From Polytrichum commune (taxonomy: Eukaryota > Streptophyta > Polytrichopsida > Polytrichales > Polytrichaceae): a stretch of 64,000 nt of DNA. The notes beneath the pieces were generated by a model. The model was not told where the DNA came from. It saw nothing but the letters and a program-made list of their open reading frames with translations, and made no database searches. Position 1 is the stretch's first letter; each line of letters opens with the position of its first letter. A program made the position numbers and the translations under genes. Below are positions 32,320-50,033 of the stretch, one piece after another. The stretch covers positions 24,647,666 to 24,711,665 of the forward strand of contig OX485807.1 of the NCBI GenBank assembly GCA_950295325.1. Direction: 5' to 3'.

Positions 32320-32322
32320 ATA

Positions 32323-32350
32323 CACTACAAGAAAACCAGCCCAATGTGAC
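32323..32350. repeat. CACTA left terminal inverted repeat
   Basis: 28 bp, perfect match to the complement of 49994-50021; begins with CACTA. Confidence 0.95.
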
Positions 32351-33470
32351 TAGGTTTTATGACTACAATACAGCATAAACCAAAATGTGACTAGCACTGT
32401 TTGTAGTCATTTTGAGTTAGTCACTTCGGACAATCTGACTAGGGGTCATATCGGACACTTCTTGTTCCCAATGTTGCGTTCCCACAGTGTTTTGGGACCT
32501 CAAAACGGGACCTGCAATGAGACTTGGACCATATGACTCTATATAGTCATACCTCTATGACTATATGTAGTCATCTATATGCAAATAGGGTCTGTTTGGC
32601 ATGACTATGTGTAGTGAGGTATGTGTCAATACATGACTAGTTCCATCACTACGCATAGTAGTAAAATGGTGACTGTTTGTAGTCATACATTGAGTTGGGA
32701 GCATACGACTCTTTGAAGTCACATCTATTTGACACCCCATAGTCACAAATGTTGAAATAGCTTCGTGGTGATATGACAAATTGTAGTGAGGTATCAGTCA
32801 ATACATGACTGGTTTTATCACTACGAACAGTAGTGAGATGATGACTGAAATGCGTCATAAATTGAGTTGGGATAATAAGACTCTTTGAAGTCGCATCTAT
32901 TGGACTACACATAGTCACGAATACTGAAATGACTTCTGAATGCTATGACTAATTGTAGTGAAATATTGGTCTCCAGTACTGAAATCATGAGATGGGCATG
33001 ACTAATTATAGTGAGGGTTTAGAGAATATAGCAATGGTTTGATCACTATGCATAGTGATTTGATTGTGACTGTATTACATCATACACACCTGAGAGAATA
33101 CGACACTGTAAAGTCAAATGTGCGTCACTACACATAGTCACCCATATCATCTGATGACTGCATGGAGTCCTTGTATACTCGTTTCTTTCACTACTGGGAG
33201 TCAAAGTTCAATATTAAATCGGAAGCATTTGTCTAGGACTTGATTGTCCTTAGTTTAGTGCAAACGTATGCCATGCAGTCGAATCTGCCATTCTTACGGT
33301 GCATAGTCATAGATTTTAGTTTCAGATTAGTGGGATAATGAGACATCAAGACTATTACAAGTCAACCGTGCGGTTGTGAGCACTGCGTCAGGTCATGCAA
33401 ATGATTTGAACACATTTCATTGAAAGAGAAAATTTCATAGCTGAAACATGATGCTCTGCAACTGGAACTC
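32351..33470. promoter_or_regulatory. CACTA left subterminal region, dense TGACT/AGTCA dyads
   Basis: Dozens of short motifs of the form TGACT-N6-AGTCA or half-sites occur here; two clean dyads are ATGACTCTATATAGTCAT (32533-32550) and ATGACTATATGTAGTCAT (32557-32574). In En/Spm the subterminal repeats are bound by TNPA and set transposition competence; by analogy these dyads are candidate binding sites for the element's own protein. The region also lies just beyond the stop codon of the TNPA-like gene and so contains its 3' end. Confidence 0.7.
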
Positions 33471-33477
33471 CATCACT

Positions 33478-36400
33478 CTAAACTGCTTGGGAGAAGGACA
33501 TATCAATGTCCATGAACTCTGTGGGCCACATTATAAAGTGCCCTACTGCTTGTCCTACCAAGGTCACGGGTGGATCATCTAGATCTATGGGTGCAAACAA
33601 ACTGTAGTTGTCATCTAGGCTTTTCAACACTTCTACAGACACACATCCTGCAATTATGGTTCTCCCGTGTAGAGAAGCACCAGCTACATTCTGCACTTTC
33701 CCGAGTGCCACAACTTTATCCTCCTCCCCTTCTTGAATTCCCTTGAGTCTCACATGGTCACCCTTCTTGAACTCCGGGTCCTCACCTTCTTGTGCAACCT
33801 ATAATAATAATAACAACACAAAACATGCATCAGTTGGGACTCAATTGTTGCTTTTATACAACGATGTACATCTCCAAGGCTCATGGGAATTATTCAAATG
33901 CTATGACTGTGAGAAGACACATATGCTAACGTCATTACTAATATCAGTCACGTATTCTAACTTCATGACTGAATCTAATCAAGCCTGGTCGCTCGTTCCA
34001 TACTACAAGTCTACAAACAGTCACGAACTTGCCATACTGAATTTCTAAAGACCTAAGGCACAACATTCCAGGAAGTGGCACATGGCACTTACATGTTCAC
34101 TTATCTGTACGTTCAAGTTTTTGGAAAGGATCACAGGGTCACCCTTCTTTAAATCCGGGCCCTCGGTTTCTTGTACAACCTATAAAAAAAAACACACACA
34201 AAACATGGATCAGTTGGGATTGAATCACTAAATAGGTGCTTTCAGAAAAAGAAACCTGTGAAAATACATGGCATGTGTGCACTTACATCTTCACTTACCG
34301 CTGCGTTCATGTTTCTCTTCCTCTTCCCTTTCGCGTTTTGCTGACTGTCAATGTTGGCCTCTTTGCTCTTCTCGGGTTGAGCTTTGCTCCCCCGGACTGC
34401 CCTTTGCTTCTTTGTATCATCGGGATCTTTCTTCAGCTTCTCAACCTCTGTCAATCGCATTCTCTTTTGGGTGCGAGTGTCCTCTTTTGCAGGCTTCGAA
34501 GCCCTCAAATTCCGAGTTGAGTACACAATTGGGGCACGTTCTCCTGACTCTGCCACGGTCACTGTACCACAATCCGGAGTGCCTCCTGTAGGGTTGCTCG
34601 AAGTTCCCGACGGATGTGAGTCCTTCACGTCACCTACTGCAGGAATCTCCTCTGCCTTCTCCGGATCTGCCGGCTGCGATTCGCACTCCCCTACTTGCTG
34701 CAAACCCAGTTGATTACAAAGTATAAGGATCCACTCAGTCATTGCTTTTCATCAAGAGCAATGTTTGTAAATGGGTTCAACAAAGCCTCACCTTCTTGTG
34801 AATTCCAGTCACTTATTTGAATTCAATGACAATGGATAGTAATACATATTAAACTGATGACTGTGAGAAGTCACATATTCTAGCTTCATTACTATTATCC
34901 ATCACGAATTTGATGTTCATGACTGCATCTAGTAAAGCCTGGTCACTGTTTCCATATCAATGACTACAATCAGTAACGAACTTGGCATGGTGAATTCTTC
35001 TAGAACTAAGGCACAAGATTTTAAGAAGTGCCCAAGCAGGAGTTGTAACAACAGGAGCTGGACAACACACATGAAGTCATGTTTGTACCTGCAGTGACAT
35101 CAAGCTTTCTTGGACCTGATCTGGCTTTCGTGAAGTGTCGGTGCCGGTGGACTCTGAGCTGGAGTTGCCTTTTGCACTTGCTGCCTTCATGGGGGTGACA
35201 ACGGGAATCTGCAGGTGCTGCATGATGCGTTCAATGTTCTTCTCCATCGCTCTCCGCCAATCACTGTCCTGCTCTGGCTTTGCATCAGACACTCGGCTAC
35301 TCGGGGAGGTTTCACTTCTGGGAATGAGTCTTCGAGGGGCATCTTTGTCGCGTGCAAGCTCCCTTTCAATTTCAACCCTAGTTGGGCTTCTCTCCAGCTT
35401 AATGGCCTGCACAGAGATCTTACATCTTATAGTTAGTGCTGCATGATTACAAAATCTTAGATTCTCTATGACCCAAAAAAGTCACGCAAACTCTGGTGAT
35501 AACTGATGACAGTCACATACTCTAATTTGATGACTGCACCTAGCCACATCATGACCTGGTTTTCGCATTGGAACAGTTGTACAACCTTTGAGATCATCTT
35601 CAACCTTATCTGTCTATTGCAAATATTTCTAATAGGGTAGTTGTATTGTGGCAATTGCCATTGAGTACTCAAAGAGTATCGCTTATATTACGAGGCTTCA
35701 TTCATAAGAGGAGGTTGTTTCTATTCCCAGGTTGAAAGTTATCATATATTATGTTGCATGTGGGTCTCCAATATAGAGTGGATACGGATGTTTTGCAAGT
35801 TGTGAGGTTGGAGCTGTAATGGACTGAAGACTTACCAATTGAGCTCGAACATATTCTTCGTTGCGCCCGGCTGAAGATGGCCTCCTCACTTGGGCTCGGC
35901 TGTATCGCAACTTCTCTGCTTCCTGTTGTTTTTTCTCCTCCAAGATGAGTTTTGACAACTTCACCCAATGGTCATGCCGAATGTGCTTTGGCTTGTCCTT
36001 CCCTTCTTGCATTCTTTTCTTCAACTGATATCTCTTCACCTTCAGTTGGCCCTTCAATATGCTGTGGAAAGCCTCCTCTGTCACCTTGCCAAGGCCCCCA
36101 TGGTACTCAAAAGTGTTGTCCACTCGTTCCTTGACAGCGAGCAACATCGAAGTGTTGAGATTCTTGTAGTTGTCTTCGCTGAAATCTATATCCTGCGCAT
36201 GACCTCGAAGACATGTTAGCCACAGCGGACAATTTTGTCCTTGTGGATGTCCCCTCAGATCGACCTCCACAAGGTGTTTTCTGGGCCCTCCAGCATCTCG
36301 AAAAGTGACCTCCTGAGCCTGTTGTTGCTTCAAAGCGACCCGTCGTCTGGACTTCTGGTCTCTGGAATATGAGGGTTTACCTAAGCTCTCAGTCATCTCC

Positions 36401-39400
36401 GATGGGGAATACGTGGACGAGTTCACCACAGGCTCCTGCATCTCCATCGCTCGCCTCCATTGCAGTAGTTGGAGTTGTTTTTCTGCAATTTGAAGGTCCA
36501 AGCTGCTAATGGGGCCGTGGCGGGGGAGGCCTCGGCCACGCGAAGGAGGTGTGTTGCCTCCCTGAACACGAGGAAGCTCGGGTACTACGTCATTGCAGTA
36601 ATCGAACGGCTCCCCTGTTAGTGAATCCTCTGACATCTTAAGGGGTTTGTCGTGTTGGGGTCGGTCTCTTTGCGGCGGACGGAGGCTCGTTGACGTGGGT
36701 TTTGGAATTCCACAACCTCCAGGACCTCGCTTGCGCACCTCCCAAACAGTTGGCTCGGTTGTCTGAGCTCTGGCCTGCACAGTGCATACAGAGGTCATCA
36801 ATCTCAATGTCAAGGTTAGTCGTTCTCTCAGTTCATGTGACTAGAACCAGTCACATGAGCTCAACGCATACGAAGTTTGTTAGTCAACTATTTAGTTCAT
36901 GTGACTAGAACTAGCGAGAACATCACGAGCGACAACCCCAACATTTCCTGGAGAGATGTCGGGAGGATACTGGGCTCACAATGGCAAAACATGAGCGAAA
37001 AAGATAAGAAGGTCCCCACTCAAAACCCTCATAAATGTGTACCTATCATGCCTTTTGTCTTCCTTCCATTATTGCCTGACAAAATCATTAATTCTTCAAT
37101 GCGATTTGAGATATATTTACAAACACTGTGATAGCAGCTAGACTAAAACTTTACATTAAGGAATGCAGCATACATAACCATAATATAGTGATCAGTGACT
37201 AGTTCCAGATGAAGTCATTGTGGGAAGAATAAACAGGTCTGAATTTGTCGACAGCCTTGGGCAATCAAAACCAATGAAAATATTCTTTTCAACAAAAAGA
37301 CTTCTAAGAAATTCTTTCCAGTGGACTCATAACATGGTGTCAACATGGAAAGGGAAATTGTTTAATTGCATTCACCTGTAAATGAATCCAGCCATATATA
37401 AGGAAGGCAGAGGCAGACAAGAAACGATACCAGAGAGAGCTGAAGCGCTGCAAGAAATGTTAGTGCTCAATACAAGATGCGGCTGACCAAGTGACCTTCT
37501 CCAAGCCCATGGAATTACACATCTTGATTTAGTTGTGATATAGACAAACCTTCCAGATACATTGATTGACAATCTTATTTTGCTACCCTAACCCCTCGAT
37601 TGAGCTGTGTATTCAAAGGATGCCAAAAAAATTTACTAAAAAAACCTTACCTGGTGATTGCACAACGCTACTTGTAAGTTGTTAGACCGGCCACAAAGAG
37701 AGTAGAAACATGTGGACTGTCCAAGACTGCCAATGACAGGCTTCATGAGAATTTCAGAAATGGTATCTTTTGACCCATCGCGAAAAAAATCAAGCATTAA
37801 ACCCCTCTGTATGACACCTTCAGGCCCAGAACGGGCCTTTCGAACCTATAAGGGTTAACAGTAGGAAGGCACTAAGAGAGGTCAGCTTTTCCAATTACTT
37901 CGCATCTCAAGTACACTAAACAAGCTGATGAAGATAATCAATAGCTCGTTGGGCAGGCTGCCTACAAATCGGGAAGTGCAAGTGTGCAGGGGCTTGGTAA
38001 TTTGAGAAATGAAATAAATTGAAAAATTATTAAAAAAAATCTGAATAAGGTTGTGCTCTTGCAGGTTATTGGTAGTCTATATAGAGATGGCAGGCTTGGC
38101 CTTGCAGGATGCAGGCTCCACATCATGGTCCGGGGAGAACTGACAGCTAGTTACAGATGAACTACTTGAGTTTGATAAATAATTGGTTTAATTGACAGGC
38201 TTCATGAGAATTACCGTTTGTTTTAGAGGAATCTCAGGCATCCTTCATTGAATCTACTTAGAAACCTGTGCTTTCACTGAAACTATGACAAATACAATTG
38301 CAAAATCCACCCACTCTTCTTTCAGACTGACCTAGTTCATCACAAGATTTGAGGGCTTGATTGATAAGAGAAGCCTGTGCACTTGAAAAGAAAATTCAAC
38401 ATCCATGAGGCAAGTTCGCCTTCTGCCTGCTCACAGATTCTAAAACGGAATAAAGATGAGCCAGAAATAGTAGGACATTCAAAAAGATAAGTGTGCATCC
38501 TGAAAATGGACACTTGTGATCTGGACAGGACAGAAACCATACTACGGCGCATGAAGGCTGGGATATACCTTTCCATTTTCCTTTTGAATACTGTCAAAAG
38601 TGAGTTGAGGAGTAAATATACAAAGAAAAATATTGACATACAGAAATCGAAAGATGGTCTACACCTGAAAAAGAAGTTGCTTCAAAAATGAACACTTCAA
38701 AGCATATACATTGCCCTTCCTAAACCTGCTGGTGCTCATTAAACTGGAAGTTTGTTTTGAACTTGAACCTTAAGCCTTCCACCAAGAATTATTAGAAATT
38801 CAGTAGGGATTCCACTCTCACAAAGCACGTTGTAGCCAGCGTAGGGCATCCATAAGGAAGGACTGAAGATTTTGTTTTCTGATGCACCTAAACTGGAGAA
38901 ATTTTATGTAGCTCACACAAGGTTCCCCTTACCCTCATGCAAACTATTGTGAGCAGCAAGTAGCACACCAGGGAGTAGAAACTCATCCATGCACCTCTTC
39001 TGCTCACCTCTAACCAAACATCCTTGTCTTTACACCCATCAGGCCAGGTATCGATACAACTTTCTGTCTACCCTATCCCTTTCCAGAAATTCTCTTTCAA
39101 TCAAGGATTCAATGCGCTTTTTAATCACAGCAGGGTTCGGTAAAAAGCGAGCTTGGAGCTGCTTGGTCACCTCACTGATGATATTGTTGTGGTCCAAAAG
39201 TCGTCTTGACTTCATGATTCTCACAATAGCAGCCTCTATTTGCGGTTTCCTATCTTGATCGACTATGCCCAAAAACTGCCCAGACATTGCTCCACCTTAA
39301 ATCTAACTCAGTGTAGCGACACATCGTTGCTACACTTGACGATTACCCACCCCAAATGAATGCTTACAGCATGTGAAGAAATCCCAACAGTGAGTTAGTA

Positions 39401-40209
39401 CACTCACCTGAGGATTTTGCTTGCTTTGATGTGGCTTTCCCACTCCTACTGGCAAGGTGTCATCATCGCCATTGCCACGCTCGTCTTCAAGGCAGATGTC
39501 AGCTTCGCTGTCCGTGTTCTCTTCTTCGTTGTGCCACTCCTCGGAACTGCTATTCACGCTCCGCCCGCCCTCCTTCGATTCCTTCGATTCCGCGTCCTTG
39601 TGCTTCTTCCTTGCACTCCGCAACGTTGTGCCAGATCTTGGTGGGTTTTTGTTTAGTCGCTTACTCCGACGCACGAGCTCCAAACCCCCACTGTAGTCCT
39701 CTCTGCAGGTCAAGCAAACCTGAAGTTAGTGAGGTCGAAACCAAACTCAGTGAAGGAGTTCTGCTCACATTAAATAGAGGAGGCCAGGAGGATGACCTTA
39801 GGGGCTACGGTTTAGGGTTTCCTTACCCTAAACGTGGGTTTTCGAGGCTGCTGGAGCCGGCGCGGCGGGTGCTCTTCACGGTTGCGTGATTCCCCTCTCC
39901 TGTTGCCGCTTCGGTCGTGCATGTGATTGTTGACTCTTTCAACGATGCTGCCAGAATGGGGACTCCAAGCTCCTGTAGCTTGAGGGCGTTCTTCCGTAAG
40001 TTCGCCTCCCGCAGCCTCTCGTAATCGGGCACTTCGGCGTCCTCGTCTCTCCCAAACCCTTCCTCCGATGCCTGGTCCTCAGATCCTTCCGAACCCCGGT
40101 CCTTGGAGTTGGTGTCGTCCTCTTCAGTTGCCGAAGGCGCTGCAACGGCGTTCGTGGGCGTCTCCATCGCCAGAGCAAGCAGGAGCACTGAGGCGTGGGA
40201 GGCATTCAA
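33478..40209 (-). CDS. TNPA-like second CACTA protein (Transposase_24 type), seven-exon model
   Basis: Exons on the minus strand: 40209-39827, 39702-39408, 36774-35836, 35406-35089, 34697-34299, 34179-34093, 33798-33478. Every junction has GT/AG and the frame stays open for about 913 residues, with phase 0 at all introns but the first. The N-terminus is acidic, then [20 protein letters not shown] and a basic [13 protein letters not shown] segment. Exon 3 holds a Transposase_24-like stretch ([34 protein letters not shown]), as in Ptta/En/Spm second proteins. Exons 4-5 are charged and lysine-rich with likely nuclear signals. The C-terminus (KKGDHVRL...[12 protein letters not shown]...[14 protein letters not shown]) resembles the DUF8039-type end of such proteins. 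Start could also be the Met at 40167. Intron 2 (2.6 kb) contains captured host pieces. Expected role: DNA binding at subterminal repeats with TNP2. Confidence 0.7.
33756..34228 (-). repeat. 381-bp-period duplication that doubled the start of the last TNPA exon
   Basis: About 88 bp at 33756-33845 recur at 34137-34228 (GGTCACCCTTCTT, CCGGG-CCTC, TTCTTGT-CAACCTATAA, AAACATG-ATCAGTTGGGA). The two copies contain the 5' part of exon 7 and of exon 6 with their acceptors; their products both begin V-QE-E-P--KKGD-V-L. Confidence 0.85.
36830..36914. repeat. Two TGACT dyads, the second cut at the capture junction
   Basis: GTTCATGTGACTAGAACCAG-TCACATGAG at about 36831-36859 is a complete dyad. A second copy starts at 36894 (AGTTCATGTGACTAGAACTA) but stops at 36914, where HMG-box coding sequence begins without the right half of the dyad. 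Confidence 0.7.
36915..37011 (+). pseudogene. Captured exon fragment of an HMG-box protein
   Basis: The plus-strand frame reads [20 protein letters not shown] then [12 protein letters not shown], the second half of helix 1 through helix 2 of an HMG box (compare the family pattern NP-IS---VG--LG--WK-MS--EK). It is preceded by AG and ends AAG|GTCCCC, so it has the borders of an exon. Which HMG-box gene donated it (HMGB or SSRP1-like) cannot be told from 32 residues. It lies in TNPA intron 2 on the opposite strand. Confidence 0.7.
37651..37845 (-). pseudogene. Captured host exon, unrecognised, in phase with the TNPA gene
   Basis: 195 bp open on the minus strand ([20 protein letters not shown], then [20 protein letters not shown]), bounded by TTATAG| acceptor and CAG|GTAAGG donor, phase 0 at both sides. 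It lies in TNPA intron 2 between exon 2 (ends phase 0) and exon 3 (starts phase 0) on the same strand, so it could be spliced in as a 65-residue cassette without breaking the frame. I do not recognise the protein. Confidence 0.6.
37846..39038. other. Host-derived sequence with possible further exon fragments
   Basis: A minus-strand stretch around 38430-38340 ([20 protein letters not shown]) looks coding but is unassigned. TGACT dyads, abundant elsewhere in the element, are not seen here. The 31-bp sequence at 38997-39027 is repeated exactly at 40941-40971. Confidence 0.4.
39039..39275 (-). pseudogene. CUL3: Captured 3' end of a CUL3-type cullin gene
   Basis: After a GGGCATAG| acceptor-like site the minus strand encodes [60 protein letters not shown] and [13 protein letters not shown] followed by a stop: the complete C-terminal winged-helix domain of a cullin, including the IVRIMKSR neddylation motif (target Lys) and the invariant Y-YLA end. 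Wording is closest to plant CUL3 rather than CUL1 or CUL4. About 74 of 730 or so residues are present, uninterrupted. It lies in TNPA intron 2 on the same strand; its phase does not match exon 2, so it is probably not part of the TNPA product. Confidence 0.85.
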
Positions 40210-40219
40210 GCGCCCTTGC

Positions 40220-40460
40220 CATCGCCATTTTGAAAATCAGGTGAGAGCCGTTGCCAGCGTCAATTTGTGAACTTAATGCTGCTTAGATCAGAGAGTAGCA
40301 CCACTACGTTTGAACGCCGCCGGTAAGTAGGCCGCTTTTAGGGTTTAGGGATCTGTAACGAAAGTGAAATGCAAAGATTCAGGTTTAGGGTTTCTAGTCA
40401 CATTAAGGTACAGATCTAATTGCTACTGTCTAGGCTGCTTTAGGGGTTTAGGGTTTAGCT
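40220..40460. promoter_or_regulatory. Telo-box cluster upstream of the TNPA-like gene
   Basis: TTTAGGG-type motifs occur at about 40337-40353 (TTAGGGTTTAGGG), 40383-40391 and 40443-40459 (GGGGTTTAGGGTTTAG), and another inside intron 1 near 39811. In plants the complement AAACCCTA (telo box) is a promoter element of many growth-related genes. Here the motifs lie 130-250 bp upstream of the TNPA start, in the interval between the two divergent genes. It may be the element's own promoter or a captured one. Confidence 0.5.
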
Positions 40461-40983
40461 ATGGTGTTCGAGAATTTCAATCCACTGGGGTGATGGTATT
40501 ATAAGGGTAAATGGTTCAAATGGTTGTTACTCTGCTCTGGGCTTCTTTTGGCTTGCATGTTGGAAGGAACCGTTAAAGAGCTCAATTGTTGGTGAATGAA
40601 CAAAGCACAAATGCTTCCAATGGATGAGAAGCCCTAATAAAACCCTAACAAAGTTGTTTCAAGTGCCCGGAACTATTTGTTGTTTCAAGTGCCTGGAACT
40701 ATTTGTTTAGATCACTTGTCATACTCTAGGTGGATTACAGTATATCTCACTCCCAACTTGCATATCCACTATCTTAGAACAAGATCCTTATTAGATTGAA
40801 TCCTTCTACTATGGCTTCAATGAATGTTTGGAAATCTTAAGACTTCATTGATATGTTATACTGGACATTCCCAACTTAGATGAGTTGGAGTTGTCATATT
40901 GCCTTCTGATTTCACGCATCTTTAGCTTTCAATACAAAGCCTTCTGCTCACCTCTAACCAAACATCCTTGTTCTGTACATGTG

Positions 40984-41086
40984 ATGACAGTGGCAGCATT
41001 AAAGAAGGCCCTGGATCTGGCATTGAAGGTGGAGAAGGTAACGAAGTTCAAGCAAGTAGAGAGGCACTTGCAGAATCCTTGCAGGT
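40984..41086 (+). pseudogene. Possible captured exon, unrecognised
   Basis: Open in two frames and ending TTGCAG|GTGAAC, a good donor; a GATGACAG| acceptor-like site is at the start. One frame gives GSIKEGPGSGIEGGEGNEVQ, the other ALKKALDLALKVEKVTKFKQ. I cannot tell which is real or what gene it came from. It directly follows the 31-bp repeat at 40941-40971. Confidence 0.4.
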
Positions 41087-41303
41087 GAACAACTGATTGA
41101 ATTTCTAAACTCACTTTGGAGAAGTGTCATTACAGATGCCATTTATTACTTGTACCTGTAAATGTTGTTCCTTCACTGCAAGATTTTGCATCTTAAATGA
41201 AAGTTCTTCATGTGTCATCCTTCTCATTTATATACTTTCCCTGATGGCCATGGCTGCCTAATTAACAGATTTTTTTTCAGGCTCTGATTAACTTGTCTAC
41301 CAG

Positions 41304-41438
41304 GTTCGATTAATTGCCTCAGTCCCAGGCTACCATGAAGGTCGAAATTTGGCCAAATGGGGACACATGAAGCCTCGCTCCATCTTACAAGAGCAATGCT
41401 TTGACAAGCAGTTTGCAGGTGCTCCCTGCATTTATCAG
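41304..41438 (+). pseudogene. TDP1: Captured exon of tyrosyl-DNA phosphodiesterase 1
   Basis: The 135-bp exon, bounded by TCTACCAG| and CAG|GTACCT, encodes [20 protein letters not shown] and [20 protein letters not shown] ending CIYQ. This is the segment between the two HKD-type halves of plant TDP1 (pattern [21 protein letters not shown]). TDP1 removes topoisomerase-I adducts from DNA 3' ends. Neither catalytic motif is included, so the piece has no enzymatic capacity. It is the only TDP1 exon I can see here. Confidence 0.8.
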
Positions 41439-41616
41439 GTACCTACACATGACTGCAAATTCTAGGTAATCCTTTTATTTTATTTTATGTTAAGGATGTG
41501 ATGATTATGTATATGGGTAGACAAGTTTATGTATATAGGAGGACAAGTTTTTGGTGACATAACATCTCTGGGTATGCAACATCTTATAATCTGCTTGGGT
41601 TTATGACTGTCTACAG

Positions 41617-41785
41617 TGCTTGGATATCTGAGTGCTTTAGCCTCTGGGCAGCACTTCCCAATTGTCGGTATTGGAATCTACAGTGGGCTTCTCTTAATGC
41701 ACGCTGCATCAAGCACTCAAGAAGCTCTTTTGATTGGGAGCCTTTCTTGCCCACTCTCTTCACGAATTTTGTGCGCTCCTTTGAG
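41617..41785 (+). pseudogene. Possible captured exon, hydrophobic frame
   Basis: Bounded by CTACAG| and GAG|GTAATT. One frame is fully open and hydrophobic (LGYLSALASGQHFPIVGIGI, YSGLLLMHAASSTQEALLIG), compatible with a membrane segment; another frame is open as well. Source gene not recognised. Confidence 0.45.
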
Positions 41786-41871
41786 GTAATTCACATCCAG
41801 AGAAGGTATTCCTGATGACATCAATATTGTGTTTCTCTTTTGACATGGCACTTGTGATGATATATGCACAG

Positions 41872-42957
41872 GTCAGCAGATGCTTCTGTAAGGTTGTTTG
41901 ATCACCGCAAAATTTCAGCTAGTGGTCAAGGAGTTCCTATTGAGCAATTTGAAGGGCATTCTGCTGCTGTACTGTGTGTCCAGGTATACTCAATTGCATC
42001 AGCAGTAATTAAATTATTTCACTTGTATAAATTTATCAGCACTTGCGCACATAGTTAACTAGAATTTGTAATTTGTCATTGTATAGCACCCTTATTTGCA
42101 AGTAAAGATCCTTGTCATGGAAAATGTGATGTTCTCCCACAGTGCATTTGGAAATTGCAAAATGTTGGGTATAAAAAACAAAATAAGGAATGTCAGCTGA
42201 ATATTGGAAGTAACTGCTTGACAAAACTCTCAACCTTTAAACTCCAACTGCCTTATACTACTTGGAGTCGTGAGGTTAAAAAATTTGTATGTCCGCAAAT
42301 GTATATGAAGAAGCCATGATCAATGAAAGTTTCCGAGCTAATCTTGAGTTGCTTCAACTTATTAAAGTCCACTGATGGTGAGCCATAAGAAGGCCACTAG
42401 GCACCCCAATTATGTTGACTGTTGAGTCTAGAATGGTTGACAATTTTTGAGCACAGGGTCGAATCTCTTTCAAACACAGGTCTCTTTGGTGTCCAATCTT
42501 CAATCTGCACCTACCCACACACCACTCAAACATAGGTGTCCGATTAACCAAATCAGGCCCACTTATCTTAATGAATGACCTTGTGGATTGCAATGTGCAG
42601 TGGTGTCCTGACAGAGCATCCGTTTTCGGAAGCTGTGCTGAGGATGGATTGCTTAATGTTTGGGACTATGAGAAGGTTAGAGTTTTTTGCCTTATTTTAG
42701 TTTGTCTCCAATTGGTCCTTCTGTGAGTTCTCACATTTCGAGTCCCAGTTAGCTGCACCTTTGAGATTGCACGCTGGTTTGTGAAGAGTCAAGTTTGAAT
42801 AACTATGTCCCTCGTCACTTCAATATTAAATCGAAATCTTGTCAAGTAGTTTCTAATGTTGTCTAATATTACAGGTGGGCAAGACACTTGATACAAGTAA
42901 ATTTAAGCAACCAGTGAAGGTGCCTTACGGACTTTTCTTTCAACATACAGGGCACAG
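41872..42957 (+). pseudogene. Captured MSI4/FVE-type WD40 gene fragment, three exons with introns
   Basis: Three consecutive exons with canonical borders: 41872-41983 (SADASVRLFDHRKISASGQG, FEGHSAAVLCVQ), 42601-42675 (WCPDRASVFGSCAEDGLLNV, WDYEK) and 42875-42957 (VGKTLDTS, YGLFFQHTGHR). They give about 1.5 WD40 blades in the order and wording of plant MSI4/FVE (FEGH-AAVLCVQW-PD-SSVFGS-AEDGLLN-WD). That protein is a histone-binding WD40 subunit acting with histone deacetylases and in transposon and flowering-gene silencing. Retained introns show DNA-level, not retro-, capture. The first intron also contains a 170-bp dispersed repeat (42405-42547). Confidence 0.85.
42405..42547. repeat. Dispersed repeat inside the captured WD40 intron
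   Basis: Same-orientation relative of 61335-61473: shared TTTTGAGCAC, AATCTCTTT-AAACACA-GTCT, ACCACTCAAA-ATAGGTGTC-GATTAA. The insertion may predate capture (present in the donor gene) or follow it. Confidence 0.65.
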
Positions 42958-43429
42958 GTGTGCAGTGTGGATACTTCACTTCCATGCCTCAAGTGAATAA
43001 TATTCATGGAACTCTTAATTATTGCATTTGATAGATCACCGTAGACTGTTGTTTGGCTTAACACTATATAGAGTGTTGATAGGTGATTACTATGTTGGAT
43101 TCAGTATGGGCTTCTAGATAGAGAGGACGTCATAGGACACTTGGTGATTTATGATAAGTCATGAAGAGCACTCTATTCAATTGAATATGAATGGAAAAAA
43201 TTGAATATGAATGTGTTTGGTGTTGTGGGAAGTTGCATCACATGTGAGCTTTTGATGAGTATTTATGATATGTGTGATTCTTGGCAGCTAATGGTAAGTG
43301 AAACAAAGAATAAGAGTAATGGATACATATTTGCATCGTATGACTGCTAGCAATCAACCAAGGGTCGAATTCTGTAAACATGTGGTTGCAACCCTTGCTC
43401 CCTTCTTCATTCCTTTTTGCTGAAGGATG

Positions 43430-44378
43430 ATCTGACCAGGGTCAGTCATACTTTTGGTTTATGTGACGGTGCGAAGTCACATAAAAAGTCAGCACATAGA
43501 GAGTTCAGTAGTTAGCAGCTTGGTTCATGTAACTGACGGCAGTGACATGATATGTAGTTGACTTGATATGCTGAATATGTAGTCTGACTTGATATGTAGT
43601 TGACTTGATAATGTAGTTGACTTGATATGCTGAATAAAATTGCAATACCTATATTGTTCTCCACATACAAAAGTTGTTGGTCATTGAACTGGCTGAAGTA
43701 CTATGAGTTCAGCAACTAACAATACATTTAACATTGACAATGGACTTGATTTATATTTTTTGATTTCAGTGGGATTTTTATGCACGTGCCTAATTGTTGA
43801 AGCATTTGAGACACTTGACTGCGCGATTTCATGAACTCGTGTCATAGGTTGTTTATAGACTTCATAGCTATTGGTATTTTATTATAGTTGGCAAATTTAA
43901 CTATTATAGTATATCAATTTGTGGAGGATGTTGTTACTCTGAATTATTAGTCAGTCACATGAACAAAACTTCTCACTACTGAACTGGCTATATGAAGAAG
44001 GATTGTGACTTTGTACAATCACAAAAACCAAACTTATGACTGACCTAGGTGAGTCTTGCAAGCTAGGGCGTCCATAAGTTGGATGATCCTGAAGCAAATA
44101 TAGACTTTAAGGACTGCCACCAAAAATCTTCCAGTCTGAAGTTCTCTTTTAAGCTTACATGAAGGGGGGGGGGGGAGTACGTGTGGCAGTGAGTCTAGTA
44201 TTCTAGATATTGGTAGCAGTCATTTGGTGAACTTGATGGTTAAATTGAGAGTTCTGGCATAACTAGTCAAGATCCATGTTGTGAAATTGTAGTGTGATTA
44301 GGGTTTTTAGTTCCCACGCTCAATTCCGCGTGGTTTTCTGAACAGGAGCAAGTGGCATTGACCGCCTTACATTGACAA
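43430..44378. promoter_or_regulatory. Upstream region of the TNP2 gene with TGACT dyads
   Basis: TGACT/AGTCA motifs reappear from about 43440 (GACCAGGGTCAGTCAT, ATGTGACGGTGCGAAGTCAC) onward, including a short tandem of TGATATGTAGTTGACT at 43548-43630. This is taken as element-derived 5' sequence of TNP2, marking the right edge of the captured region. G10 at about 44166-44175. Confidence 0.45.
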
Positions 44379-47300
44379 ATGGCTAGGCGTGGAGCGACGG
44401 GGGCAAGCGACCTCCACCTCTGGGAACTAGAGGAGAGAGAGGCAGATAGATTGGGGCTAACGCATTACCGTTGCCCATGCAGGAACTGTATGGGAGGTCG
44501 TTGCATCAGTAGGGGAACCATTCGCAAGCATCTCAGAACCATCGGAAGAGACCCTCAATTCACTGTGCCTATTTTGGTATGTCTACATAACTACTAGGAG
44601 AACAGTTGAAATATGACTAGAACAGTTCAATATGGCATGGCCAACATTACTGGTTTTTATTAGAATTTGTGACTAGGTCTAGTCACATATGACTGATTCT
44701 AATCAAGGTTGACTGTCATAAGTAACATCCCACCAAAACTAGTCATGCATTCTTATTAAATCCAGTCATATCGGACACGCAATGAGGTAATGCTCCAGTG
44801 CTAAAATACTTTCAACTATTAATTCCGGGGGGTGTGCTATGTTCAGGCTGGACTCGTGGATGCGGAACAGGACCTTGTTGAAGAGGAAGTTAGGGAAAGC
44901 CCTCATCAGCTGGACAACAACAATGGGGGCATGGACGCAATAAGAATGATCATGGAGTGCCTCTCTAGATACGATAACCTCGAGGACGAAGACCGTGAGG
45001 ATTGTAGAAGAACAGACGATGTGGAGGAGGACGACGCAATCCCCGGGGAGGAAGGGGATTGCACGGCAGATTTAATGGAGGAATTACTTGCGCATGCCCG
45101 AACTCCCCTCTTTGCAGGTGCCACAACAAGTCGCTTGGTCGCAACTCTGCTGCTCCTCAATTGCTTTGCGGTGTTTGGAGTATCGAATGCATTTGCTGAT
45201 GAACTACTTCAACTGCTACATATTCTCCTTCCAAGCGACAATTACCTACCCCGTTCCCACTATGAAGCCCGGAAGTATGTGGTGAAGCTGGGACTGTCCT
45301 ATAACAACATTCATGCATGCCGCAATGGATGTTGCCTATTCAGAAAGGAGTTGCAGGATGCGAAGTCCTGTCCAAAGTGCAACGCCCCGAGATACAAGTC
45401 GGAGTCCAGCCCAATCCCATCCAAAATCCTACGCCACTTTCCGTTGATTCCCCGTCTGAAGCGCATGTACCGGTGCAAAAGATTGGCGGAACTTAACAAA
45501 TGGCACGCCAATCAGAAGAAGGAGGGTATTAACGTGGAATGCGTCCCTGACTCGAAGGCCTGGAAGAATATTGATTCGTTGGATGCCAACTTTACAGATG
45601 AGCATAGGAACATACGCTTGGGGATGGCATTGGACGGTGTGAATCCGTTCGGAAACCAGTCGCTCAGTCACTCGACATGGCCGGTCCTTCTGGTGAACTA
45701 TAATTTGCCTGCATGGCTAGTGACAAAGCCATTTTTCATCATGCTTGCATTGCTTATTCCAGGTATTGCTTACACTCAGAACTGATGACTGCATCTAGTA
45801 ACCAGCATAGTAAGAAGGTTGACTGTGAATAGTGCAATTTCTGAAACCAGTCACTGGTTCCAGTATCTACACTCAGAATTGTTGACTGCATCTAGTAACG
45901 AGCATGGTAAGAAGGTTTACTATAATTTGTCTGCATGACTAGTGACAAAGCCATTTTTCATCATGCTTGCATTGCTTATTCCAGGTCGCGAGAGCGTGAC
46001 CTCGGAGAACATCGATGTGTACCTTACTCCATTGATTGAAGAGCTCTTGGAACTTTGGAAAGGGGTACCAGCCATAGATGTGTCTGAAGAGCCCCCAAGA
46101 CAGCATTTTAAACTACGGGCTCTACTTCTTTGGTGCATTCACGACTTCCCTGCGTACGGACTCACATCTGGCCAAGTCACAAAAGGGTATAGAGCGTGTA
46201 CCAAGTGTGGGCCAGATGTTACAACTCGGCGGTCAAAGGCTCTCGGAAAGAATGTATATTTAGGTCACCGCCGGTATCTCAGTAGATGGCATCCATATCG
46301 TAGGCTCAGGCATTCATTTGATGGTTAACAGGAGTACCGACCTCCCCCTCCAATTCTAACAGGATGCGACATCAAGGGCTATGCACAAGAAAGATTGTCC
46401 TTCCTGCAAGAGTCACAGGGAAGAAGAGGTGGAGGAGAAGGCGACCCCATTCAGCGTACCGGAGTGAAGCGGCTCTCCGCTCTGTACAAGCTTCCGTATT
46501 GGCAGGTACTTAGCGCATTCACAGGTTCCAGTAACTGACATTTAGAATTGTTGACTAAATCTAGTAACAAACACGCTTATCTGGTTGAATGTGAATAGTG
46601 CAATTTCTGAAATCAATCACTGGTTCCAGTAACTGACATTTAGAACTGTTGATTGAATCTAGTAACAAACACGCTTATCTGGTTGAATGTGAATAGTGCA
46701 ATTTCTGAAATCAATCACTGGTTCCAGTAACTGATAGTTAGAATTGTTGACTGACTCTAGTAACAAACACGGTTAGCAGGTTGAATGTGAATAGTGCAAT
46801 TTCTGAAATCAATCACTGGTTCCAGCATGTTCAGTTATAATTGTTGACTGACTCTAGTAACCTGGTTGGTAAGAAGAGTGATTGTGAATAGTGCAATTTC
46901 TGAAATCCATGACTGCCAGTATGGATGAAACAAAATATGGACCTATATCTTTTCAATGAATGCTTAAGAGTTTTTGTCGAAAGTGAGTAAATCTGACGCT
47001 GGAATGCTTTGCTGGGATTTCTGGCAGGACCTCCTCATTAGACATCTTTTGGATCCCATGCACTGCGAAAAAAACATCTGCGAGAACGTGATGAAAACAA
47101 TTTGGGGAGTCCGTGACACTTTGAAGGCCCGGCTAGACTTAAAAGAGGCCAACATTCGACCATATCTGCACCCTCTTCCAGGAAGGAAACTTGGGTCTGT
47201 CGTACTTCCAACAGCTCCATATGTACTATCGAAAGAAGAGAAGGCAAAATTCATAGACATTATCCGCAATTTGAAGACTCCTACGAACTACGCTGGCCAA

Positions 47301-49104
47301 CTTGCAAAATGCATTGCGTCGGATGGGGACTTGAAGGGGCTGAAATCTCATGACTACCATGTCTTGATGCAACAATTGCTCCCCTTGTGTTTGCGCACTC
47401 TCTTAGACAGGGATACGCGGGTGGCAATAATACGGCTTAGCCGGGTGTTTGTACGATTGTGCGCAAAATCCGTAGATCCCTCGTCCATGGAACAGTTATT
47501 GGAGTACACAGCTGAGACTCTATGCATGCTAGAGATGGTTTTTCCACCTTCATTCTTTGATGTCATGTCGCACCTCCCCATTCACCTGGTGCAGCAGTTG
47601 GATATATGTGGTCCCGTACACACCCGATGGATGTATCCTATTGAGCGGTACCTGAAGAGACTGAAGGGCTATGTTAGGCAACGAGCAAAACCTGAGGGAT
47701 CCATGGCGAGGGGGTACACAATAGAGGAGGCGTTAGGATTTTGCACAGAGTACATGCAAGACTGTGAGCTAACACGCAGGAGGACTTGGGACGACGAGGA
47801 GGAAGTAGGGGCCAAGAGTGAGGTCGCGGAGGGTACAGGTCGATATCGACTCTTGACATCAGAGCTGAGGACACGGATTCACGAGTTTGTTCTCACGAAT
47901 GCTGAGCCTCTACAGTCATACAGAGAGTAAGCATCACATGTTTTAGTCATGCACTCTGTCTAGAAGGGACAATGTGACTCTATAGTCAACAAAGGTCTAT
48001 TGCGTATTAATTCCAGTCATCATATTGCAACACATGACTAACAGATAGTAAGCATCACATGTTTTAGTCATGCACTCTGTCTAGAAGGGACAATGTGACT
48101 CTATAGTCAACAAAGGTCTATTGTGTACTAATTTCAGTCATCATATTGCAACACATGACTAGGGAATTAGATGTTGATGACGTTTACATTTATCTGCCGG
48201 TTGTTTTTGTTATGTAAAAAAATTCCATCCACTGTGGCTTCCAATCAGACGTCACTACTTGGAGATGGAAGCGCGGCACAGAATGCGTGCAGAGATACGT
48301 CGTCGATCACGGGGCAGAAGAGCAGAGTATCCAGCAATCGCAAGGAATGAGCAGTTTTCTGAGTGGCTTCCAATCGCGGTGCAACGGGATGTGGCAGCAG
48401 GCACAGAGGTCCATGAAGATATTCTTGGCCTTGTCCTACCACCTTCATGCGAGGCAAAATCGTATCGCAGCATGTATGCATACGGGAACCATATACGTGT
48501 GCGAGGAGCAGAGGGCCACTTGTCAACGTGCGACAGCGGAGTAGCTGCAACATTCTCACAATCTTGCCGTTCCAGCAGAAAGGACAAGAATCACAGGCTT
48601 GCGAACGTGGAGTACGTGGGGTGGGTCGAAGAGATTATTGGGGCTGACTATGGGAAGTTCGAAATACTCCTACTGTATTGCAAGTGGGTCCGCGCCACGT
48701 GGATTGGGCCACGGGCAACTATGAAAAGAGATGAGTACGGTTTCACTCTCGTGAACATTGACCGTACCATTCCGTACTCATCAGATTCGTTTGCGTTTCC
48801 TCTTCATGCTCAACAGGTCTTCTTTGTTGACGATGTGGCACATCCTGGATGGAAGGTAGTTCTACGCAAAGAGGCACGAAGTGTGAGAGTGACTTCCATG
48901 GCTGAAGGAAGACCAGATCTACACTGCCTAAGCTTATGCGACGATGTTGTAACTCAGGGATTGATGGCACATCATGTCGCTGATGATACCGTAGCAATGC
49001 CACCTGTTTTATCAAGTTCCAGGGAGCTTTCTAGCAACGAGGTGCAGCTTGCTATGCAAATGGAGGATACAGAGGCAGACTACAATGATGAATCACCACA
49101 GTAG
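44379..49104 (+). CDS. TNP2 (TNPD-like) CACTA transposase, five-exon model with one in-frame stop
   Basis: Exons 44379-44576, 44847-45762, 45985-46505, 47028-47926, 48249-49104; all borders GT/AG and the frame sums to 1130 codons. Exon 1 has the transposase-associated zinc-binding motif (YRCPCRNCMGGRCISRGTIR). Exons 2-4 carry the Transposase_21/TNP2 core: RLGMALDGVNPFG, LLVNYNLPAWLVTKPFFIML, WCIHDFPAYGLTSGQ, RHLLDPMHCEKNICENV; acidic residues in these motifs are the likely catalytic ones (family knowledge). Then a DUF4218 domain (HDYHVLMQQLLPLCLRTLL, HLPIHLVQQLDICGPVHTRW) and in exon 5 a DUF4216 domain (LLYCKWVR, YSSDSFAFPLHAQQVFFVDD, WKVVLRKEAR). TAA at 46326-46328 (codon 486) interrupts exon 3; both sides are otherwise clean, so the defect looks recent, or the codon is bypassed. 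It cuts and moves the element together with the TNPA-like protein. Confidence 0.85.
45697..45986 (+). repeat. 68-bp tandem copies that define TNP2 intron 2
   Basis: 45697-45764 and 45919-45986 are identical at 66 of 68 positions (ACTATAATTTG(C/T)CTGCATG(G/A)CTAGTG... to TTATTCCAGGT). The offset is 222 bp. The intron, 45763-45984, is also exactly 222 bp: its donor GT lies at the end of copy one and its acceptor AG at the same CAGGT of copy two. Confidence 0.95.
46524..46914 (+). repeat. 98-bp tandem repeats in TNP2 intron 3
   Basis: GGTTCCAGTAACTGA-type starts lie at 46524, 46622, 46720 and 46818, a strict 98-bp period, with the last copy diverged. Each unit has ATTGTTGACT...CTAGTAAC, GTGAATAGTGCAATTTCTGA and CAATCACT. 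A related copy, about one and a half units, fills intron 2 (45771-45915). Confidence 0.9.
47927..48165 (+). repeat. 121-bp tandem duplication in TNP2 intron 4
   Basis: AGTAAGCATCACATGTTTTA starts at 47926 (the splice donor) and again at 48047; the units are nearly identical through AACACATGACTA. Each contains several TGACT/AGTCA motifs. Confidence 0.9.
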
Positions 49105-49993
49105 GACTGTAGGAGCCCAACTACTATCTGTAGAATTTTGGTACAGCAAAAGAGTAGTCACAGAGATTGCACACTTAACAAATTAAAGTTGTATGGACAA
49201 AGGGGGTTCATTACCAATATAAGTAAAGGAAATTGTGTCTGTGACTATGTTATATCGCAGTCATGACTGAATCCAGTAAAGAAAACTGTCCACATGGCTA
49301 CGTTATTTTGTCAACACTTTGGCATCTCAAAAAAGTATGGGAAGGTGATCAATAACGGCTTTGTTGTGAGCATGGGAATTCTGTAGCCTGGTTAAGCATA
49401 CACGGCAATGTCGTGCATCTGAAAAGAAAGTGGGAAGATATTCCAAGTGGAATCATGATTTCTGGACGCCCAAGCCAATTACTTACTAATTTTTGAAGGT
49501 GTGTTTAGTTCCTGTTTCTATGATGGGGTGCCTCTAAAATGACACGTGATCATGTTTGCGCGCAGACATGGTAGTGTTGAATAGACGAGCTATTATGTAA
49601 GTGAAGATTATAGACCTACTTCTATATCACAACACTCACCCATGGAGCCAACGACTAGAGGACTTCAAAATCATCTGATTGAAATATATGACAACTATTA
49701 GTCAGTTCATTTACTACAGGAAGTCATGTAGTCACCCAAACCAACTCTCTTACTGCAGTAAGACATACATAACGCATTAGCATTAGCATGACTACACATA
49801 GTGAGCACTCATAGCATGACTCTGGGAACCGGGCAGGAGAACATATGTCCCGTTCCCGTAGACGTTCCCACCCAGGTCCTCAAAAATATGACTACGTATA
49901 TGACTAGACCATGACTGGACCCTCTTAGGACTGATTTTAGACTAAACCAATGACTGAGGTGACTACATAGTCATATGCCCTTAGTCACATCCG
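49105..49993. promoter_or_regulatory. CACTA right subterminal region
   Basis: 3' flank of TNP2 followed by dense TGACT/AGTCA motifs, most obvious from 49,690 to 49,990. A GGGAAC/GTTCCC-rich block (49,825-49,880) has a counterpart near the left end (32,465-32,515). Confidence 0.65.
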
Positions 49994-50021
49994 GTCACAT
50001 TGGGCTGGTTTTCTTGTAGTG
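49994..50021. repeat. CACTA right terminal inverted repeat
   Basis: 28 bp, perfect complement of 32323-32350; followed by the ATA target copy 50022-50024. Confidence 0.95.
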
Positions 50022-50033
50022 ATAATATCAATT

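What the first reader, a model, noticed from the sequence alone, without database searches (positions are those of the whole stretch)
45697..45986. TNP2 intron 2 arose by tandem duplication (intron gain caught in sequence)
A 68-bp block containing the exon end and the string TTATTCCAGGT is repeated at 45697-45764 and 45919-45986 with two mismatches. The offset (222 bp) equals the intron length (45763-45984). Donor and acceptor are the same CAG|GT site of the two copies, so splicing exactly removes one duplication period and restores the conserved LLIPG-RESVTSENIDVY join. This is the predicted signature of intron creation by segmental duplication of an AGGT site, a mechanism proposed in the literature but rarely visible in such fresh form.
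Basis: partly seen in the sequence, partly recalled or inferred. Interest (0 to 1): 0.85.

Follow-up and report, generated by a model that had tools for sequence, protein, structure and literature searches.

The report
New intron born inside jumping gene
A transposase gene in a (probably plant) genome seems to have gained a new intron when the end of an exon was copied twice with a piece of a neighbouring intron between the copies, and the same genome still holds sister copies without and with it, so the birth of an intron can be read step by step.

Summary
A 68-bp block (45697-45764, 45919-45986; 2 mismatches, offset 222) brackets a 222-bp GT-AG interval, 45763-45984, inside the Transposase_21 domain of a complete CACTA element (32323-50021; matching terminal repeats, TSD ATA).

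15 copies carry the interval; 7 close copies and 136 of the 150 scored TNP2 matches read straight across the site. So it is a gain, most likely a single one.

The interpretation needs correcting. Only the last 66 nt of the intron are duplicated exon. The middle (~150 bp; ~248 bp in four copies) is satellite whose best match (95%) is the next intron of an intronless sister, L015. Eight bases at one junction repeat the exon end; the other shows GGTNNACT microhomology. The nine copies tested change sequence type within 83 bp of the new intron's 3' end. Best reading: template-switching repair between transposon copies, i.e. tandem duplication with filler.

Splicing is inferred, not observed: ten of 15 copies are open over 2,249 coding nt if the intron is removed, changes shared between copies show purifying selection (omega about 0.22), and 12 of 13 copies tested have matching 3-bp TSDs.

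The parts
32323..50021 (+). Complete CACTA element (17.7 kb), TIR CACTACAAGAAAAC at both ends, TSD ATA (32320-32322 / 50022-50024)
44925..45762 (+). TNP2 exon upstream of the new intron (part tested for coding integrity), start of Transposase_21 domain
45697..45764 (+). Block copy 1 (exonic; repeat extends left to 45692), ends CAG|GT
45763..45984 (+). New intron, GT...AG, 222 nt here (219, 221, 222 or 319 nt among the 15 copies)
45765..45772 (+). ATTGCTTA, 8 nt identical to exon end 45749-45756: probable templated junction insertion
   Evidence: 26 of 20,000 random 8-mers of filler composition occur in copy 1
45771..45921 (+). Satellite filler, 151 nt aligned without gaps to L015:2207-2357, intron 3 of an intronless sister
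45914..45921 (+). Right junction, GGTNNACT: pattern common to satellite (GGTTGACT) and exon (GGTGAACT)
45919..45986 (+). Block copy 2; 45919-45984 is now intronic and carries TGA in place of TGG in 15 of 15 copies; supplies the acceptor
45985..46505 (+). TNP2 exon downstream of the new intron; the window copy has a stop codon at 46326
45977..46067 (+). Interval in which intron-bearing copies change from L015-like to L016-L021-like sequence (46032-46067 in seven representatives, 45977-46032 in two; nine of 15 tested)
46519..46915 (+). 98-bp satellite array in the next intron (46506-47027); only 76-83% like the filler in the intron-bearing copies, so their present array is not the nearest source
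47028..47917 (+). Next TNP2 exon, used in the coding-integrity test

Best explanation
It is a recently gained spliceosomal intron in the TNP2 transposase gene of a CACTA transposon family. SHOWN: 15 copies have it and 7 close ones do not; it consists of exon copy, satellite and an 8-nt junction piece; its best source is the satellite array in the next intron of an intronless sister. INFERRED: a break in or near the Pro-Gly (CCAGGT) codons of one element was repaired by copying from another element (strand invasion, synthesis and re-annealing, i.e. SDSA). The new strand ran through exon 2 to CCAGGT, slipped back 8 nt, jumped about 0.75 kb ahead into the satellite, copied about 1.5 (or 2.5) units, jumped back at GGTNNACT to the exon, copied its last 68 bp again and rejoined the recipient in the next exon. 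This left two copies of one proto-splice site around a filler. The spliceosome uses the first copy as donor (the bases after GT come from the filler) and the second as acceptor, so the protein is unchanged. The intron-bearing element then spread by transposition (12 copies with their own TSD).
For: Presence/absence across the genome (one search finds the same 22 family loci with a different stretch). Filler to source: 151 nt ungapped to L015:2207-2357 for the window copy, 248 nt ungapped for L011 and L013 and 248 nt at 91-94% for L011-L014; 95% to L015 against 76-83% to the arrays now in the intron-bearing copies. Junction piece and microhomology. Type switch at the intron 3' end: window copy L015-like at 53/71 diagnostic sites left, 1/118 right, 0 of 1000 permutations; in L013/L014 a tract bounded 44913-45010 and 45977-46032 with the other type on both sides. 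Tree conflict: L015 with intron copies on the left (100/100); L016-L021 as one clade rejected on the right (AU p 0.0098, 0.00037, 0.0006); right side with outgroup also rejects L015 plus intron copies (p 0.0045). Splicing implied by: 10 of 15 copies free of stops and indels over 2,249 nt once the intron is removed; shared changes 24 N: 33 S against a site ratio of 3.36 (omega 0.22, p 1.4e-8); intron length varies with GT-AG kept in 15 of 15; TSDs match in 12 of 13 copies tested.
Against: No transcript was seen. Left of the intron, L015 groups weakly with two intron-bearing copies (86/85); one clade of intron copies is not rejected there (p 0.14, 0.063, 0.25) but not shown. With a distant outgroup, exon 3 alone puts the root inside the intron-bearing copies and rejects their being one clade (p 0.019); I discount this because the outgroup branch is 0.28 against about 0.01 within the group and the exon 2 root disagrees. 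In the rooted exon 2 tree L016 falls beside L015 and the intron copies (82/79), though L016-L021 as one clade is not rejected (p 0.10). Which lineage is the recombinant is not settled by distances. Other copies (L017, L013/L014) also look mosaic, so the nearness of switch and intron could be luck: by my arithmetic about 3% for one breakpoint within 83 bp either side in 4.9 kb.
Confidence: 0.7

Rival explanations
1. Two events: the intron was gained within one L015-like element (filler from its own next intron, by local template switching), and an unrelated later recombination replaced everything to its right with L016-L021-like sequence.
For: Filler and left side are both L015-like. Recombination between copies looks common here: L017 moves between clades and L013/L014 change type near 44913-45010.
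Against: Needs the second breakpoint to fall within 83 bp of the new intron by chance. In L013/L014 the L015-like tract has the other type on both sides, as one conversion tract would.
Confidence: 0.3
2. Plain Rogers-type tandem duplication of a ~71-bp AGGT exon segment first gave a ~71-nt intron; satellite DNA was inserted later.
For: Both blocks and both splice sites are as that model predicts; later length changes in the satellite part do occur.
Against: The filler sits at the seam of the two blocks with microhomology or exon-copied bases at both ends, which a later insertion would hit only by chance. No copy with blocks but no filler exists among the 15.
Confidence: 0.12
3. L015 is not a pre-gain sister but a post-gain recombinant that lost the intron by crossover in the repeated block; L016-L021 remain primitively intronless.
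For: L015 groups with L013/L014 left of the intron at 86/85, and in 45000-45764 only two sites (45089, 45569) unite the intron copies against it.
Against: The 86/85 grouping rests partly on three sites within 5 bp (45221-45225); without them the intron copies fall together, weakly (66/40). It leaves the filler's match to L015's own array as a coincidence.
Confidence: 0.15
4. The intron is ancestral to the 22-copy family and was lost in L015-L021 (recombination between the repeats would delete it exactly).
For: Exon 3 rooted with distant outgroups puts the root within the intron-bearing copies.
Against: 136 of 150 scored TNP2 matches lack it. The two blocks within a copy differ at only 4-9 of 73 sites. 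In exons 2-4 the two groups of intron-bearing copies differ by 0.015-0.035, the intronless copies among themselves by 0.03-0.11.
Confidence: 0.04
5. A duplication that is not spliced: broken copies amplified in trans.
For: No RNA evidence; the window copy itself has a stop at 46326; non-autonomous CACTA copies can move in trans (general knowledge).
Against: Ten of 15 copies open over 2,249 nt; purifying selection on shared changes; length changes in the intron but none in the exons of those ten.
Confidence: 0.07

Closest known systems
[quoted passage not shown] ATP2A1, Hellsten 2011), as described in PMC3443670 and PMC4974935
   Same: Duplicated exon segment with CAG|GT, both splice sites from the two copies, protein unchanged, intronless relatives.
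   Different: Most of the intron is not exon-derived: filler like another intron's satellite separates the blocks and supplies the donor bases after GT; the event lies at a recombination boundary.
Potato RdRp intron gained by tandem duplication (PMC4974935; first of five parts read, then passages)
   Same: Recent plant case with identified source and pre-existing intron sequence re-used.
   Different: There the 3' splice signals come from the parental intron; here the 3' signals come from exon and the body from an intron's satellite.
[quoted passage not shown]
   Same: Direct repeat at the ends of an insert, filler DNA, repair origin proposed.
   Different: Daphnia end repeats are 4-12 bp and sources mostly unknown; here 68 bp with a likely source in the same gene family.
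Amphioxus 'mirage' minisatellites at exon-intron boundaries (PMC3087553, passages)
   Same: Tandem duplications over exon-intron borders proposed to seed introns.
   Different: There a hypothetical model; here copies without and with the intron are both present. The 121-bp duplication at 47920-48161 is the nearer match to a mirage.
CACTA transposase intron survey (PMC4158355, passages)
   Same: Same gene family; boundaries of 64 transposases compared.
   Different: The passages seen report loss as dominant and one conspicuous clade-wide putative gain, without a duplication mechanism.
Chimeric SDSA filler at DNA-transposon excision sites in rice (PMC4423477, passages)
   Same: Ectopic copying with filler after transposon-related breaks, linked there to gene conversion.
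   Different: Excision footprints in host DNA, not an intron inside the element.

Membership tests
Rogers-type tandem-duplication intron | Exonic segment with AGGT duplicated in tandem | tested here: met
   68 bp, CAG|GT in both
Rogers-type tandem-duplication intron | Intron consists of the duplicated exon segment | tested here: not met
   45919-45984 is exon copy; most of the rest is satellite like that of another intron
Rogers-type tandem-duplication intron | Intronless relatives show that it is a gain | tested here: met
Rogers-type tandem-duplication intron | Spliced at the duplicated sites | not testable with these tools
   no transcripts held; indirect support
Intron gain by break repair with filler | Inserted sequence with identifiable outside source and microhomology or templated bases at junctions | tested here: met
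Intron gain by break repair with filler | The break itself | not testable with these tools
   past event; only its products are seen
Intron transposition / intron transfer | A whole existing intron with its own ends placed at a new site | tested here: not met
   only internal satellite units align, not the ends of intron 3; splice sites come from the exon
Introner-like element / transposon insertion | Dispersed repeat with its own ends or target duplication at many genes | tested here: not met
   the 85 matches listed lie at the loci of this TNP2 family (places compared by eye); that search skips very common words, so a widespread repeat could be missed
CACTA (En/Spm) transposon | CACTA...TAGTG terminal repeats, 3-bp TSD, TNP2 transposase | tested here: met
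   window element; TSD matches in 12 of 13 intron-bearing copies tested; L013 and L014 start CACAA; PF02992, 4.6e-27 and 6.5e-37

The most novel reading that the evidence does not exclude
One aberrant gene conversion between two transposon copies made the intron in a single stroke: it duplicated a proto-splice site, borrowed ready-made intronic DNA from the satellite array of the neighbouring intron, and installed the product in a recipient of the other lineage. A satellite-bearing intron would thus act as a local seed for further introns, and the element's own breaks (for example repair after excision) would supply the chances.
Probability: 0.45. Interest if true: 0.75.

Novelty: new variant of a known kind. 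Interest (0 to 1): 0.62.

Why it matters
The review PMC3443670 (passages) says that even many recently gained introns fit none of the proposed mechanisms. Here copies without and with the intron, the likely source of the inserted DNA and both junctions sit in one genome, and the gene stayed under selection afterwards. It suggests that 'tandem duplication' and 'break repair with filler' can be one process, shows one way in which a duplicated exon site obtains an intron-like body, and shows that a multicopy transposon can keep the intermediates that single-copy genes lose.

Tried and rejected
Introner-like element: rejected, the listed filler matches lie within this TNP2 family. Whole-intron transposition: rejected, the ends of intron 3 are absent. 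Known RNA elements in the window: none at Rfam gathering thresholds. Outgroup rooting of the family: tried with 8 distant copies of 17 fetched, unstable. Deciding by normalised distances whether the intron-bearing copies or L015 are the recombinant: inconclusive (the normalising was mental arithmetic on its table). First count of differences between the two blocks was off by one base and was redone for 11 of 15 copies. The '31-base deletion' that one search prints for all seven intronless copies is, I think, the aligner splitting the block (one search shows no such gap). L009 was left out of the upstream and left trees, the first tree and because its upstream part does not match; L017 and L021 were also left out of the most upstream tree. 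The rooted trees also omit near-duplicates L002-L004 and L012. The breakpoint test used 9 of 15 copies and skipped sites in 45692-45913. Selection counts used 14 of 15 copies (L009 dropped) without correction for mutation bias; the counter also scored 1 shared and 4 single changes as stops. Part of the output was cut. No scored model of splice sites was run; the remark on the donor rests on recalled plant consensus. Counts of copies are lower bounds in principle (score only the best candidates), though searches agree on 22 loci.

Papers: only search listings or passages were seen except PMC4974935 (first of five parts, plus passages). In the rows listed by searches I saw no title or abstract start that reports an intron gained by duplication plus filler from a neighbouring intron, or such a case in a CACTA element; several of these lists were cut (for example 25 of 340 papers, 20 of 85), and the library holds open-licence papers only. 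Recalled, not seen: plant work on tandem duplications from paired nicks and on patch-mediated break repair in rice, and abortive gap repair of maize transposons.

Full report
WHAT WAS CHECKED. The interval 45763-45984 begins GTATTG and ends TTCCAG. Joining 45762 to 45985 restores LLIPG-RESVTSENIDVY in phase 1. Both sides match Pfam Transposase_21 (tnp2), profile positions 9-81 and 68-190 of 213, so the interval interrupts that domain. It lies in a complete CACTA element, 32323-50021, with 14-nt terminal repeats CACTACAAGAAAAC and TSD ATA.

GAIN OR LOSS. A search of the same genome with 45600-46100 finds 15 copies with the block-filler-block structure (window plus L001-L014), 7 close copies without it (L015-L021) and one truncated copy, L022, that leaves the homology inside the block. 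A search with a downstream stretch of L015 finds the same 22 loci at 93% or more. A search with the joined protein scored 150 of 592 candidates. 14 matches start within the intron's exon copy (intron-bearing copies); the other 136 run through the site (my count from the table). In the intronless copies the exon simply continues...ATTCCAGGTCGC.... The ancestral state is therefore intronless. Within an intron-bearing copy the two blocks differ at 4-9 of 73 sites (11 of 15 copies compared).

WHAT THE INTRON IS MADE OF. From the donor: GT; then ATTGCTTA, identical to the exon end at 45749-45756 (26 of 20,000 random 8-mers of filler composition occur in that block); then satellite; then 66 nt of duplicated exon ending in the acceptor. 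In the window copy the satellite aligns without gaps over 151 nt to L015:2207-2357, the array in the next intron of an intronless copy. The genome search gives 95% there and 76-83% for the arrays now in the intron-bearing copies. L011-L014 have a 319-nt intron whose satellite matches 248 nt of the L015 array at 91-94%. The right junction, GGTNNACT, is a pattern common to satellite (GGTTGACT) and exon (GGTGAACT). This is not the layout of a simple tandem duplication, which would leave only exon sequence between the blocks.

RECOMBINATION AT THE SAME SPOT. At sites where L015 differs from L016-L021, the window copy follows L015 at 53 of 71 sites up to 46032 and at 1 of 118 from 46067. Nine of 15 copies were tested; none of 1000 shuffles reached the signal in any. 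In L013 and L014 the switch lies at 45977-46032, and upstream they return to the other type at 44913-45010, which leaves an L015-like tract of about 1 kb that ends at the new intron. Trees agree: left, L015 joins the intron-bearing copies (100/100); right, L016-L021 as one clade is rejected (AU p 0.0098, 0.00037 and 0.0006) and the intron-bearing copies form one clade (100/96, 100/99, 100/100). Against this, the left-hand data do not settle whether L015 lies outside all intron-bearing copies, distances do not settle which lineage is the recombinant, and in exon 3 a distant outgroup roots within the intron-bearing copies and rejects them as one clade (p 0.019), which I take for a long-branch error.

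IS IT SPLICED. No transcripts can be searched here. Indirectly: GT-AG is kept in 15 of 15 copies; the intron varies in length (219, 221, 222, 319 nt), including lengths that would shift the frame, while 10 of 15 copies have no stop and no indel in 2,249 nt of flanking exons; retention would meet a stop at intron nt 21 or 15. Among 14 copies, changes shared by two or more are 24 amino-acid and 33 silent against a site ratio of 3.36 (omega 0.22, p 1.4e-8); changes in single copies are 48 to 30 (omega 0.48). The exon copy inside the intron has TGA for TGG in 15 of 15 copies. Of 13 intron-bearing copies whose two ends were read, 12 have identical 3-bp TSDs, so the element moved after the gain; L012 did not match, and L009 and L011 were not tested.

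MECHANISM. The evidence fits template-switching repair: copy exon 2 to CCAGGT, slip 8 nt, jump about 0.75 kb forward into satellite, copy 1.5 or 2.5 units, jump back to the exon, recopy 68 bp, rejoin a different element in the next exon. The products of each jump are shown; the order, the break and the claim that it was one event are inference. Repair after excision of the element is a natural source of such breaks; SDSA filler at transposon excision sites is described in PMC4423477 (passages). The filler gives the first CAG|GT an A at +3 in place of the exonic C, which I expect to help splicing (recalled consensus, not scored).

COMPARISON. Known parts: proto-splice-site duplication (PMC3443670, PMC4974935, PMC2891723) and filler at repaired breaks (PMC4202315, PMC3296678). 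New as far as the listings I saw reach: both in one intron, with the filler like a neighbouring intron's satellite, at a conversion-like boundary, inside a transposase gene whose copies without and with the intron survive together. The CACTA survey PMC4158355 (passages) reports mostly loss and one conspicuous putative gain; no duplication mechanism appears in the passages. I file it as a new variant of intron gain, not as a Rogers-type member, because the defining composition test fails.

Noticed in passing
window 47920-48161: A 121-bp tandem duplication covers the end of the next exon and its donor (ACAGAGA|GTAAGC). The donor unit occurs twice in 11 of 15 intron-bearing copies and once in the 4 others and in 7 of 7 intronless copies (up to 4 mismatches allowed): a second exon-intron border duplication in the same lineage.
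   Followed up: partly
window 46326: The window copy has an in-frame stop in exon 3; ten other intron-bearing copies are open over the stretch tested.
   Followed up: partly
L011 and L012 (C7:19.44 Mb and 19.38 Mb): Near-identical element copies in opposite orientation about 66 kb apart, probably an inverted segmental duplication; the two ends I assigned to L012 show no matching TSD.
   Followed up: no
L009 upstream of about 45300 equivalent; L022 after 1453: Two copies leave the family's homology abruptly: L009 upstream is about 40% alike, and L022 breaks inside the very block that was duplicated and runs into a GA-rich repeat.
   Followed up: no
window 46519-46915; L015:2000-2440: The 98-bp array in the next intron differs in unit number between copies and between lineages (about 80% alike), so it evolves fast and could be a marker of exchange between elements.
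   Followed up: partly
G000 C5:8490292-8493476: A roughly 3.2-kb pair of element ends 99-100% like the window element's ends, with no TNP2 match among the 150 scored: likely a short non-autonomous derivative.
   Followed up: no
L013, L014 left ends: The left terminal repeats of these two intron-bearing copies start CACAACAAG rather than CACTACAAG, yet both have matching 3-bp TSDs.
   Followed up: no
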